Of a stretch of 64,000 nt of DNA, positions 53,863 to 63,917 are shown piece by piece. The stretch covers positions 806,001 through 870,000 of the forward strand of contig WWBZ02000009.1 of the NCBI GenBank assembly GCA_011503125.2, written 5' to 3'. The DNA comes from Botryosphaeria dothidea (lineage: Eukaryota > Ascomycota > Dothideomycetes > Botryosphaeriales > Botryosphaeriaceae). The translations under genes and the position numbers were made by a program. A model generated the notes under the pieces. The model saw only the letters and a list, made by a program, of their open reading frames with translations, had not been told where the DNA came from and did not search any database. Positions within the stretch are counted from its first letter, which is position 1, and the number at the start of each line of letters is the position of its first letter.

Positions 53863-55225
53863 TCAGCAGGTTTTTGCGCTTTCAAACCCCCGTACTTCGA
53901 TTGTCCTGTGGCTCATTACCAAGCTTGCTAACTTCTCCTTATCCGAGGCAGTGAGGATTGCGGAACCAGATCCTCGCTTGCTTATTAGCAGCTCTCTACC
54001 ATATTGATTTTTGAATTCAACTTCTGCCTCCCACTCGAATAGCGGCGATCTCTCCCTAAAGAAGCTCGGCTTTCCATCCTGATACACGAGGACATGACTA
54101 TCCCGTACTTTCTCCACGTGTACCGTTCGGAAGTTGCCCCGGACATCTGCCACTACGGTAGCATGCCAGGGCGTCATCGTAAAGGAATCTTGCGGGATTA
54201 GGGGAATGTAGAGTTTCTCCTTGCCGGAGGACGGGTGGATGGAAAGGCGAACATGGTCACCAAATCTCTCGCGGATCACCTTGGCGAACGTCTGCAAAGC
54301 ACGTCGCTTGTCAGCTTTCTCCATACACCTACGTCCCAGTATCAGAATAAACAACAGGAGAGAGACGTACAAATCCACGATCGATTAGGTTCTTGGCCAA
54401 GTCTTTCACCAGAGCCACCCTACGTCTGCGGCTGGGCTCATTCTTCATCGCCGGCAGGTGGGTCAGCTCCTTTTCAAAAAACTTGAGGTAGCCACGGTAC
54501 GTCATTAGAGTATCAGGGTTCACTTCGAGGACCTTTTTTACGTCGAAATTCGGCTCGCCGTACTGCGACAGTAGTTTTTGTCGCGTTGGTGCGCATGACC
54601 GCAGAAAAACGTCCTTCGTGATCTCTGACTCGTCGCACAGGCCGAGCACGCTTACCATGCTATGGAAGCGCAAAGACGTATATCCTTTTGTAGCGGCGAT
54701 GTGGCGTAGTCCAGATTCGTAGACCCAAACGTCTTCGTCCGACACCCAGTTGATATCTGCAACAGCGATCAATAATGTACTGTAACCATATCAAGGAAGG
54801 ATCCTGAACCTACCGTTGTAGCAGAGTCCATCATTTACGACCGCGACAGTGGCTCCTGGAGCATATACTTCCTTGATATCTCGACAGAGAGCCTCAAGTC
54901 TGGCCAATGCGAGCTCTTCTCCAAGATCCGGCTCAGGACCGAGCACCTTATCCACACGGTTGATACTCTTGTACGGAAACGCTGGTAAAACCATTGGTAT
55001 GGTCCTACCAGCTGAAACGTGCTCCTTTATCACGGACGCAAATGATGCTGCGGTCGCGGCGGCAGTAGCGTCATCTTTCGAATCTCCCAGACTGTATCTC
55101 CCTAGAACACAAAGAACCCGGAACGTAACGTCTTTCGGACGAGGGCACCTCTCCACCTTCCCATGGAAAGTATGACTGTGATGAGATGATTGTGGAAGAA
55201 ATGTAACAGGCTGGCTCAAAAGCAT
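53863..55225 (-). CDS. Isocyanide synthase-family protein 1 (DIT1/PvcA)
   Basis: DIT1/PvcA-family enzyme of about 408 aa from exons 55225-54814, 54756-54371 and 54291-53863. Known relatives convert the amine of an amino acid to an isonitrile, or (yeast Dit1) formylate tyrosine. Family marks are IPMVLPAFPYKSIN, KVLGPEPDLGEELALARLEALC, PDTLMTYRGYLKFF, RFGDHVRLSIHPS and KLYIPLIPQ. GKPSFFRERSPLFEW is followed by a C-terminal extension. The second intron is 79 nt, the same length and place as in the partner gene. I start at MLLSQP; the first ~45 residues do not resemble the family, so the true start may differ. It is divergent from the second synthase gene, 633 bp away. Confidence 0.85.
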
Positions 55226-55858
55226 GGCAGAAGTCGTGGTCGCTTCAAAGTCTATCAACGCACGAGAGAGACACGTCAACTGGCTTTGTATGTCGTACCT
55301 TCTTTCTTCCCCTATATGACTTGCTCTTATAATGATTCATCATGTCATAGTCTCTACTCCGTAACACGGACTGCTAATCTCGCGTCACAGGCACAAATAC
55401 GAACTGTTGATCTTGCCATATACATTCTCCAAAGAGGATAGGATGCAATTCTCTAGCAAATAACTCTTACCTCCGTACGATCAGGGCCAAACCTACCATG
55501 TGGCGAGCATAAATCTGCCAAGCATTGGAAATCCTGTCATTAGTTTTTGAAAAGGCGTTAAGGCGTACTTTAGTGTATTCATTGGGTGTCTGGGACTGAT
55601 GGTGAGCTAGGGGATTGAAAAAAATAAGACATTTATCACTCTCTGCAACCTGATCCTACGTCCTACTGAGTTTTCTTTGTCAACACCTTCCCGATAATTG
55701 TTCTTCCCATAGATTCCATACAGTTCGTTCGTACGTATCCCAAATATCCCCTCAGTCGCCTATAAAGCTACAGCCGCCGTCGTGGCAAGCGAAAGTCGCT
55801 CACAACACTTGGCACCAAAGACTCCCCAACCACGTTTCCACCATTTGACTCAACTACC
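55226..55858. promoter_or_regulatory. Bidirectional promoter between two synthase genes
   Basis: A 633-bp head-to-head spacer. A TATAAAG box lies at 55761-55767, about 92 bp before the second synthase start. CCG-N5-CGG at 55359-55369 is a candidate Zn2Cys6-type binding site. Neither is tested. Confidence 0.45.
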
Positions 55859-61022: not shown

Positions 61023-61666
61023 GTGGTGGTGGAAAGGAATAGGAGTCTTTGCGGAAGACTGGACCTTCCGCTAGAGTGAGCAGTCATCTGTCCATTGGTT
61101 TAGACTGAGCACGATAAGAATACAAGCAGCAGTGGGTTTAAAATGGTATTAGCTACAAATATGCATTTCACAACTTTGGGTTCACTACTAGAAATCTTAT
61201 AAGTCTTTCTCCGTGTTTAGGGGATTTTTTTTTTGATGTTTTGTTACTAGAGCCATTTACTATAAGGCTGACTTAAGATAGTGATTTGAACTGAGTCACA
61301 CTCACGATTAATGGACAGAAGGTACGGATAGATCGGCATACCTGTTCTCTGCAGGTGCTTGGTTCGGCAAATCCTCCGGGAAATTGCGTCCATACTTTCC
61401 GCGGGGAATAAGGACTATACTCCCCGAACTACAGCACAGCCAATGCTGTCGGCCGAGTGTTTCATGAATACCGTATCTGCAGTGACACGGGTCACATCCT
61501 TTGGTGGACTTGCCAATCGTTGTTGCCTTGGATTTGCCAAATGTTCAGTCTTTCTCTCCATTCCAATGTGCCTAGAGCACCGAACGCCTAAGTTTCTTCT
61601 ATTCAGGATCCATATACCATATATACCTCCTGATTTATTTACCGTTACGGGACGAGATGTACCTTC
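61023..61666. other. AT-rich spacer before the DUF3431 gene
   Basis: Open frames extend into this region, and additional 5' exons of the next gene cannot be excluded. No independent gene recognised. Confidence 0.45.
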
Positions 61667-63917
61667 ATGGAAATGCTGGCCCCGATTGCTCGTCACACAG
61701 TCTGGTGGCAGTCAGGTTGGTCCTCAATACACCTGCATTGTAGCTGACATTGACAGTGCTAGCCTCTGGACCCTTGCTGCATCAATATCAGTTCTTTCAA
61801 GCAGGTACCTCCTGGTTGATCTGAATTATCGTAGGTCTTCCTACATTGAGGCTTTGACGATGTTATGGCTGATGACCTCTAGATTTCCGTAAGACTCATC
61901 AGGCGTCGGGCTGAACGTTAAGCTGATAGGCGCAGCGCTTCATCTCTGCTTAGTCCACCTTACCTTCGTTGCAATCTTTCTAGCGAGCCAGAGAGTAGCT
62001 CCTACAAACATAGCTCATCATACGACACCAAGATGGTTTTACGCGACTATCGAACACACAAGGGAGAGGAATCTTGATGGAGGCTGGCAATGTGGGCTCT
62101 TGGGGGCGACTTGTGTCGCTGCGGCTCTCCCGTTATCCATGCAGTCCATTCTTCACTGGAAGAACCTCTCCACCTTGGGATTTATGCCTGTAAGAGCCAT
62201 AGATGTGTCCCTTCATTCATGATGCTGATTGATCCTACAGATCTTTGCCTACCTCTTTCATGACATCTTGAGCCTGCGGCAGTTCCGATATCCATTAAAG
62301 TGGGTGAAATACCTCGAAGTCGGGTTTTGTGCCGTGTGCTGTGCAGTCCTTCTCTATGACGAATACCGGTTGACCTCAACCGGTCTTATCTGCGCGTTGC
62401 TGGCAATGCTGCTCACCGGCTTCGCCATCGGGTTTGTTCATCCACTCGACACGTCCTCTACTCAAGCTTGCGCAGACCACTCATCCGGCCCATCGCTTGT
62501 CAAGATCGTGACGGTTTCATTCGTTATCACACTTGGATGGTGTGGAAAGATGGAGGATACCTTCCAAGCTGCGAAGCACACCCTCGACATAGACCCGCTG
62601 TTACTCGGCATCAATATTGGATCCACAATGTTGGCAATTCTTCTAGGCCACTCGTTCAACGTACCGGTCAACATCGGAGGAATATTCCAGATTTCTGCTA
62701 CCATTGGGTCTGCGAAAATTGTTGGTTTCGCTTCGTTACATCTGGCCACTCGGTCTTACGCGACTGAGCTACAGCTCGGCGCCTTCTATCTGACTGTTAT
62801 ATGCATCATTGGCGCATTCCAACACGCGAGAGATACGGATCGTGTTACACTCTCGGGTCTCCTATTCCCTTTCCACCGTCTTCGTCCTCCGCCGTTGTCG
62901 CCCGACCTGATTGCCCTCGACAATGAAGGAGATTCGTCACAGATGGAACTCACGGAGGAGGCTACCGACCGTTTTGGCCATGCAATCTCGATCAAACAAT
63001 CCAGCATAGTCTTCTCCATTTCGATTGCTGCATGCCTCGTTGCAATTCTAGCTTGGATCGGATTCATAGTCGGCAATTTTGCAGGAGATGCAAATGCTTT
63101 TGATCTGATTCCACGGCTCGATCTTGCGTATACGCCAGAACACGGTTTCGACGTTGTTATCAGCATGTATGACGAACCAATTGAGTCCATTCAATCCATA
63201 ATGAATGATCTCTCGGTTGTCCTGCCTGGATCTCCGCTCCGGGTCTTTCTTTACACCAAGAGTGAGGATGTAGAGCCTTCGATCCTCGCCGCTCTTACCA
63301 ACGCCTTCAGGGTCACCAAGTTGCCAAACTACGGTCGTGAGGGAGAAACTTACCTTCAGCACATCCTACTAAACTGGAACTCTCTCGCGAAGCACACGCT
63401 CTTCGTCCAAGCGGACGTTCATAATCCTCGGGAGATCTTCCACCGGATCCAGGACTACTACTCGCCAAACAAAACTGGCATGCTGAGCCTTGGCTTTAGC
63501 GGCAGCTCTTGCAGCATTGAGAATTGTGGTGATCGTTGGGGTTGGTACGAGGACCAAGCAGTCCTAAACGACATCTGTCAACGTGTAGGCGGAAAGCCTT
63601 GCACGAACACGAATCTCCTCCTGTCTTACAAAGGGCAATTCATTGTGTCTGCAAAGCGCATTCGCGCCGTGCGACGCGAGTTCTACGAATATCTACGCAC
63701 AGCAATGACTGACCCAGAGAGCTGGGCGCACAAGGAACCATACTTACAGGGCCGAAAAGACTCGCTTAACGCGCCGCAGTTTGGATACACTTTGGAACGT
63801 CTTTGGTCCCTTATCATGCAATGCTCAAGTGAAGAGCTTGCTTGGAAATGTCCAACTCTGCTTAGTCGCACGCGAAGAGGGGGTGATCTGACCGATTGCC
63901 AGTGCCTGGACCCTTGA
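61667..63917 (+). CDS. Multi-pass membrane protein with C-terminal DUF3431 domain
   Basis: About 686 aa from exons 61667-61715, 61757-61804, 61903-62189 and 62241-63917; phases agree, but the first two short exons are tentative. The first two thirds contain roughly nine hydrophobic segments (for example LIGAALHLCLVHLTFVAIFL; VGFCAVCCAVLLYDEYRLTS). The C-terminal DUF3431 domain has FDVVISMYDEPIESI, GREGETYLQHILLNW, ADVHNPREIF, WGWYEDQ and LLLSYKGQFIVSAKRI. The family resembles small glycosyltransferase-like folds in fungi, but no reaction is proven. It follows the NRPS-like gene in the same direction by 644 bp, so membership in the cluster is possible. Only 83 bases of window remain. Confidence 0.75.

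What the first reader, a model, noticed from the sequence alone, without database searches (positions are those of the whole stretch)
53863..63917. Candidate isonitrile cluster with two DIT1/PvcA synthases and a separate A-T-R enzyme
Two isocyanide-synthase-family genes sit head to head, followed by a standalone adenylation-thiolation-reductase enzyme and a DUF3431 membrane protein. In fungal examples I know of, such as the Aspergillus CrmA type, the synthase and NRPS-like modules are fused or only one synthase is present. Two unfused synthases with a reductase-ending NRPS-like enzyme suggest a product with an isonitrile and an aldehyde or alcohol, possibly metal-binding. No P450 or exporter is visible within the window.
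Basis: partly seen in the sequence, partly recalled or inferred. Interest (0 to 1): 0.85.

Follow-up and report, generated by a model that had tools for sequence, protein, structure and literature searches.

The report
Paired isocyanide synthases, one altered
A plant-canker fungus carries a small gene cluster, probably for an unusual isocyanide natural product, in which one of two sister synthases has lost an almost universally conserved histidine, and a second two-synthase cluster in the same genome shows the same loss in the opposite sister.

Summary
The window comes from a Botryosphaeria dothidea-like genome (51.7 Mb). It holds two divergent PF05141 synthase genes, ICS1 (-, 408 aa) and ICS2 (+, 332 aa), followed by a standalone A-T-R enzyme (1050 aa). 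The DUF3431 gene is a weak match to a common family and cannot be tied to the cluster. The dityrosine reading is rejected: a dit1-type gene with a P450 neighbour lies on another contig.

The new point is the pairing. The genome has a second two-synthase locus, and each locus holds one A-type and one B-type synthase. The PWH histidine is H in 201 of 210 aligned rows and N in six: ICS2 with two relatives, and the other locus's A-type with two relatives. The change arose twice, in opposite partners. The A-T-R enzyme keeps four of five residues essential in Neurospora carboxylate reductase; the fifth (Glu433) is Ile.

Best reading: ICS1 makes an alpha-isocyano acid, ICS2 is a conserved non-canonical partner, and A-T-R processes the carboxylate. 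No chemistry or expression was tested. New variant of a known kind.

The parts
53863..55225 (-). ICS1: single-domain isocyanide synthase, A-type, 408 aa; exons 54814-55225, 54371-54756, 53863-54291 (start codon not certain)
   Evidence: PF05141 276.9 bits; splice model; closest listed relative P0001 62%
54163..54165 (-). ICS1 codon of His309 in the PWH motif (conserved state)
55226..55858 (.). divergent promoter region between ICS1 and ICS2 (633 bp)
   Evidence: no motif shared with the A-T-R promoter beyond chance
55859..57019 (+). ICS2: single-domain isocyanide synthase, B-type, 332 aa; exons 55859-56171, 56255-56667, 56747-57019
   Evidence: PF05141 274.1 bits; corrected model; closest listed relative P0121 71% (searched with the uncorrected model)
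56879..56881 (+). ICS2 codon of Asn287, replacing the near-invariant His of PWH
   Evidence: 201 H, 6 N, 3 other in 210 rows
57759..61022 (+). A-T-R enzyme (adenylation, thiolation, thioester reductase), 1050 aa; exons 57759-57997, 58052-58109, 58167-61022
   Evidence: Pfam; tree; catalytic residues
59154..59156 (+). A-T-R codon of Ile429, at the place of Glu433 of N. crassa CAR (motif L/F-S/A-x-G-E-K)
   Evidence: E in 110 of 119 aligned rows, I in 3; E433A inactive (PMC5826065, passages)
62229..63917 (+). membrane protein frame with weak DUF3431 match; membership of the cluster not shown
   Evidence: 33.2 bits against cut-off 25; family common in genome
48719..50472 (+). MFS sugar-transporter-type gene; possible but unproven member
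   Evidence: Sugar_tr 236.8 bits for the frame 49303-50472; start read from the sequence

Best explanation
This is a small isocyanide gene cluster with ICS1, ICS2 and the A-T-R gene as its core. Inferred pathway: ICS1, which keeps 32 of the 33 most conserved family columns including the PWH His, joins an amino acid to a carbon of ribulose-5-phosphate to give an alpha-isocyano acid. No dioxygenase partner was found in the core, so the carboxylate would remain. The A-T-R enzyme loads that acid as a thioester and its intact reductase domain releases an aldehyde or alcohol. ICS2 has Asn in place of the PWH His. It is a maintained partner that does not work as a standard synthase: it may pair with and tune ICS1, or do an altered step. 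A second two-synthase locus in the same genome shows the same design with the substitution in the other partner. Shown: the genes, domains, residues, tree positions and two separate H-to-N changes. Inferred: all catalysis, pairing, substrate and product.
Against: No work on the PWH His was found in my searches, so its catalytic role rests on conservation alone. ICS1 itself departs at one near-invariant column, Glu234 for an Asp found in 211 of 214 rows, so it is not a fully standard synthase either. Single rows outside the pairs also lack the His: P0085 has D and P0124 has Q. No ICS1 orthologue was listed for M. phaseolina (best 46%) although ICS2 and A-T-R are there. GC3 of ICS1 is 0.557 against 0.745 and 0.718 for its neighbours. 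The promoters share no motif beyond chance. A-T-R Ile429 replaces a glutamate whose alanine variant is inactive in N. crassa CAR.
Confidence: 0.4

Rival explanations
1. Both synthases are active and take different amino acids, so the cluster makes a mixed di-isocyanide or two isocyanides; Asn287 is a neutral or specificity change.
For: ICS2 keeps 31 of 33 highly conserved columns, its relative folds like PvcA and PIsnA, and relatives are retained in other genera. ICS1 also departs at one near-invariant column, so one such change need not mark an inactive enzyme.
Against: The PWH His is H in 201 of 210 rows, including 52 of the 52 rows with a residue there among the 53 distant hits P0155-P0207, which are mostly bacterial or unnamed (at least one, P0195, is fungal).
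Confidence: 0.26
2. The true unit is ICS2 plus A-T-R; ICS1 is a neighbour with a different history that became adjacent later.
For: M. phaseolina lists ICS2 and A-T-R relatives with contigs of equal length but no close ICS1 relative; GC3 of ICS1 differs; no shared promoter motif.
Against: A close ICS1 relative (P0001, 62%, labelled Neofusicoccum parvum though its tag reads BOTSDO) exists, and N. parvum also has ICS2 and A-T-R relatives; the second locus also pairs A-type and B-type; the hit lists hold few M. phaseolina proteins, so absence is weak.
Confidence: 0.18
3. ICS2 is a redundant or decaying duplicate, as reported for the second synthase of cyanobacterial hapalindole clusters.
For: PMC4236562 (passages) cites AmbI2 as functionally redundant though conserved; ICS2 lacks a near-invariant residue.
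Against: Open frame, confident fold of the relative and 71% identity across genera argue against decay.
Confidence: 0.1
4. The A-T-R enzyme is an unrelated acid reductase that merely sits beside two synthases.
For: The genome has other members of the family (best two 51% and 47%) with no listed synthase nearby.
Against: Relatives of ICS2 and A-T-R share contig length in M. phaseolina; the window copy forms its own clade with them (SH-aLRT 100).
Confidence: 0.15
5. Dityrosine-type pathway.
For: Shared PF05141 domain.
Against: A dit1-type gene with a P450 neighbour lies on contig C3, and the window synthases fall away from it in the tree (the dit1 model is partial and long-branched).
Confidence: 0.02

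Closest known systems
Aspergillus fumigatus 4G cluster (icsA and icsB)
   Same: Two isocyanide synthase genes in one fungal cluster (PMC5974471, passages).
   Different: icsB is fused to a dioxygenase there; here both synthases are single-domain and an A-T-R enzyme is adjacent.
Gene cluster family 1 of Nickles et al. 2023
   Same: Two synthases, suggested to come from an old duplication and kept together (PMC10153163, section read).
   Different: Its members were not available, so identity with this pair could not be tested; the B-type here was listed only from Botryosphaeriales plus one unnamed metagenome row.
Fusarium gene cluster family 8 and crm
   Same: A synthase with an NRPS-like partner, separate in family 8 and fused in CrmA.
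   Different: CrmA ends in a transferase domain, and family 8 is described as sharing a domain with it; here the partner ends in a thioester reductase.
Second two-synthase locus of this genome (C18:1570050-1572354)
   Same: One A-type and one B-type synthase, one of them with PWN in place of PWH.
   Different: No A-T-R match nearby; neighbours are a FAD-binding protein, an MFS transporter and a serine carboxypeptidase, and the altered partner is the A-type.
Hapalindole-type clusters (I1, I2, I3)
   Same: A conserved pair of synthase genes, one cited as redundant (PMC4236562, passages).
   Different: The two are at least 78% identical there (41% here) and a dioxygenase partner is present.

Membership tests
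Isocyanide synthase (PF05141, PvcA/DIT1) | Full-length domain over the curated cut-off | tested here: met
   ICS1 276.9 and ICS2 274.1 bits, cut-off 26.4
Isocyanide synthase (PF05141, PvcA/DIT1) | Near-invariant residues including the PWH His | tested here: inconclusive
   ICS1 keeps the His but has one Asp-to-Glu change; ICS2 has Asn for His and keeps 31 of 33 highly conserved columns
Isocyanide synthase (PF05141, PvcA/DIT1) | Makes isonitrile from an amino acid and ribulose-5-phosphate | not testable with these tools
   needs an enzyme assay
L-tyrosine isonitrile synthase (NF045653) | Score over the equivalog cut-off | tested here: not met
   ICS1 124.5 and ICS2 100.7 bits, cut-off 600; a model made for bacterial and archaeal annotation
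Dityrosine (dit1/dit2) cluster | dit1-type synthase beside a P450 | tested here: not met
   No P450 among the frames scanned beside the core; the dit1-type gene with P450 is on contig C3
CrmA-type ICS-NRPS-like | Synthase fused to A-T-transferase | tested here: not met
   Separate genes, reductase end
Fungal carboxylic acid reductase / A-T-R enzyme | A, T and reductase domains in one chain | tested here: met
Fungal carboxylic acid reductase / A-T-R enzyme | His237, Ser595, Tyr844, Lys848 of N. crassa CAR | tested here: met
   H239, S600, Y844, K848 by motif, not by alignment to the N. crassa sequence
Fungal carboxylic acid reductase / A-T-R enzyme | Glu433 of N. crassa CAR | tested here: not met
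   Ile429, by motif
Gene cluster family 1 (Nickles 2023) | Shared orthologous genes | not tested
   members not available here

The most novel reading that the evidence does not exclude
Botryosphaeriaceae isocyanide pathways run on obligate pairs of unlike synthases in which one partner has lost the conserved histidine and serves as a non-catalytic or altered-chemistry subunit. This division of labour evolved twice, in opposite partners, and in the window cluster it feeds an A-T-R enzyme whose own adenylation site has changed.
Probability: 0.24. Interest if true: 0.75.

Novelty: new variant of a known kind. Interest (0 to 1): 0.52.

Why it matters
Why some isocyanide clusters keep two synthases is unexplained; the cyanobacterial authors call the maintained duplicate curious (PMC4236562, passages). 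Here two loci in one genome give a natural contrast: the same near-invariant residue is lost in the opposite partner of each pair. That makes the 'one works, one helps' idea testable with four proteins. If it holds, genome miners should not count every PF05141 gene as an independent isocyanide maker. It would also add a pseudoenzyme-partner case to a metal-linked natural product class, comparable in principle to AdoMetDC and prozyme in trypanosomes (PMC5201418, abstract start in a search listing). The A-T-R enzyme offers a route from isocyano acids to reduced isocyanides, if its changed adenylation site still works.

Tried and rejected
Dityrosine role: rejected. A shared promoter motif between the divergent ICS promoter and the A-T-R promoter: 15 shared 8-mers against 14.1 expected, one shared 10-mer against 0.9 expected, no copper-type TTTGCTC or TGTGCTCA (motifs recalled) in those stretches. 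Repeats of 20 bases or more in 53000-64000: none. A single origin of the H-to-N change: rejected, AU p 8.3e-5, with the group named after seeing the tree and the PWH column itself left in. Monophyly of the Botryosphaeriales A-types: not in the free tree but not rejected, AU p 0.45, so whether both loci descend from one ancestral pair stays open. Literature on the PWH His or on synthase pseudoenzymes: none found among the listings (open-licence PMC papers only). Structures 9dh4 and 9dhm differ by a Cys-to-Ala change in the aligned stretch, which says nothing about the His. DUF3431 as a cluster hallmark: rejected as uninformative.

Limits: fungal genomes other than this one could not be read, so synteny elsewhere rests on equal contig lengths. 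The homolog tables list the best 120 of 227, 120 of 197 and 120 of 122 hits, so residue counts cover listed rows only. The tree used 108 of the 144 rows P0001-P0144 after thinning near-duplicates, 4 distant rows and 7 own-genome models (119 rows); one search counted states for 116 of them and left out 3 with neither H nor N. Two own-genome models (C3 dit1, C29 fusion) are partial, and the second intron of the C18 fusion model is doubtful. For the C18 B-type, two splices tied and I took the one that keeps AYENLIRQK. P0130 is cut off before the PWH motif, so the H state of the C18 B-type branch rests on the own-genome copy and P0105.
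Full report
WHAT IS THERE. The window is bases 806001-870000 of contig C5 in a 51.7 Mb, 78-contig genome. The organism is most likely Botryosphaeria dothidea: an A-T-R paralogue on contig C12 is nearly identical to P0209, named as B. dothidea, and the contig given for P0209 has 5,551,323 bases, the length of C12. Three genes form the core. ICS1 is on the minus strand and ICS2 on the plus strand, with 633 bp between start codons; the A-T-R gene follows ICS2. All three read as intact frames with two GT-AG introns each. 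Pfam assigns PF05141 to both synthases (276.9 and 274.1 bits) and AMP-binding, AMP-binding_C_3, PP-binding and NAD_binding_4 to the third. Neither synthase carries a TauD dioxygenase or NRPS domain.

SURROUNDINGS. On the left are an MFS sugar-transporter-type gene and a protein with a weak Astacin match below cut-off. On the right are the DUF3431 gene, then beyond the window edge a Zn2Cys6-type motif near C5:872310 (pattern match; the two frames downstream of it had no Pfam hit), an ankyrin protein, a GH5 match and a HET protein. No P450, dioxygenase or further biosynthetic gene was seen among the frames that I scanned, but not every small frame was scanned. A whole-genome search listed DUF3431 at eight other places and not the window copy, so it is no evidence of membership.

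AT LEAST SEVEN SYNTHASES, FIVE LOCI. The PF05141 search gave 19 exon-level matches, which I read as seven genes. They are the window pair; a tandem pair at C18:1570050-1572354 with a FAD-binding protein, an MFS transporter and a carboxypeptidase; two synthase-dioxygenase fusions with P450, flavoprotein, MFS or regulator neighbours; and one dit1-type gene with a P450. In pairwise comparison ICS2 is closest to one member of the C18 pair (48%) and ICS1 to the other (45%); ICS1 and ICS2 are 41% identical. In the tree the B-type clade holds six rows: ICS2, P0121, P0122, the C18 B-type, P0130 and P0105 (SH-aLRT 100). The A-type clade holds 31 rows (99). So both loci hold one A-type and one B-type. 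Whether this comes from one ancestral pair is unresolved.

THE ALTERED HISTIDINE. I aligned 214 rows, 207 listed homologs and 7 own-genome models. The His of the PWH motif is H in 201 of 210 rows with a residue there, N in six, and D, Q or F in one each. The F row is the cut end of a fragment; D is P0085 and Q is P0124. The six N rows are ICS2 with P0121 and P0122, and the C18 A-type with P0003 and P0006. ICS1 and the C18 B-type keep H, as do the genome's other three synthases by direct reading. On the tree this is two changes, and holding the six together costs 89.5 log-likelihood units (AU p 8.3e-5). The group was named after the tree was seen and the column was left in, so I treat the p value as descriptive. 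Across 33 columns conserved at 95% or more, ICS2 deviates at two, ICS1 at one, the C18 B-type at one and the C18 A-type at four. Of 205 near-complete rows, 136 deviate at none, 44 at one, 16 at two, 5 at three and 4 at four. The ICS1 change is Glu for an Asp found in 211 of 214 rows: conservative, but it means that the H-keeping partner is not perfectly standard. The altered synthases are not generally degenerate, and relatives in Macrophomina and Neofusicoccum argue for a function. The catalytic role of the His is inferred from conservation; I found no paper on it.

THE A-T-R ENZYME. It forms a clade with P0208 (source label lgn, no organism named), P0212 (M. phaseolina) and P0217 (N. parvum), separate from the genome's own paralogues at 51% and 47%. 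Its nearest solved reductase domain by sequence is 8aep. Of the five residues that PMC5826065 reports as essential in N. crassa CAR (abstract and passages), four are present by motif: H239, S600, Y844, K848. The fifth, Glu433 of the L/F-S/A-x-G-E-K motif, is Ile429. That column is E in 110 of 119 rows, I only in the window enzyme, P0208 and P0212, and F, H or K in six others; P0217 from N. parvum keeps E. All 50 columns conserved at 95% or more are intact in the window enzyme. From recalled knowledge of the ANL superfamily, the Glu433 position varies in acyl-CoA synthetases, so Ile need not mean an inactive enzyme.

LINKAGE. In M. phaseolina MS6 the ICS2 relative (71%) and the A-T-R relative (78%) are both listed with a longest contig of 549,561 bases, while the other M. 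phaseolina hits that I compared are on contigs of other lengths. This is indirect evidence that the two genes are linked. No close ICS1 relative was listed for M. phaseolina, and GC3 of ICS1 (0.557) is lower than that of ICS2 (0.745) and A-T-R (0.718). Those two facts support the rival in which ICS1 is a later neighbour. Hits labelled N. parvum include relatives of all three genes at 62%, 53% and 59%, but not on equal-length contigs, and the ICS1 relative carries a BOTSDO tag.

MECHANISM. The best-supported account is ICS1 as the working synthase, ICS2 as a conserved non-canonical partner, and A-T-R acting on the retained carboxylate. The carboxylate step follows from the absence of a PvcB/TauD partner in the core and parallels CrmA, which makes valine isocyanide and carries its own A-T module (PMC9381783, abstract and one section). 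Substrate and product are unknown: the L-tyrosine isonitrile synthase equivalog scores 124.5 and 100.7 for ICS1 and ICS2 against a cut-off of 600.

WHAT IS KNOWN. Two-synthase clusters exist in A. fumigatus, in gene cluster family 1 and in cyanobacteria. Unfused synthase with NRPS occurs in Fusarium family 8. What I did not find described is a conserved pair with one partner altered at this residue, or a synthase pair beside a reductase-ending A-T-R enzyme (searches; open-licence papers only; listings, not full reading). I therefore rate it a new variant of a known kind.

Noticed in passing
G000 C18:1570050-1572354 (L011 2820-5811): A second two-synthase locus, with a FAD-binding protein, an MFS transporter and a serine carboxypeptidase; its A-type synthase carries PWN and also has Gly at a conserved Arg column.
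   Followed up: yes
window 57124-57147: A perfect inverted repeat with 10-base arms and a 4-base loop (GGTCAAACCC-CAGA-GGGTTTGACC) between ICS2 and the A-T-R gene.
   Followed up: no
window 59940-61022: The reductase part of the A-T-R gene has GC3 of 0.88-0.97 against 0.53-0.73 over the first 600 codons of the same gene.
   Followed up: no
G000 C36:564303 and C69:2262544; C12:3077506 and C3:1378031: Pairs of matches with identical scores on different contigs, suggesting duplicated or doubly assembled stretches in this genome.
   Followed up: no
homolog rows P0223, P0228, P0237: Three Aspergillus A-T-R proteins have Phe at the position of the essential CAR Glu433.
   Followed up: no
window 51709-52176: An astacin-like metalloprotease frame with HEFGHALGLIHE (Astacin 21.1 bits, just below cut-off) between the MFS gene and ICS1.
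   Followed up: no
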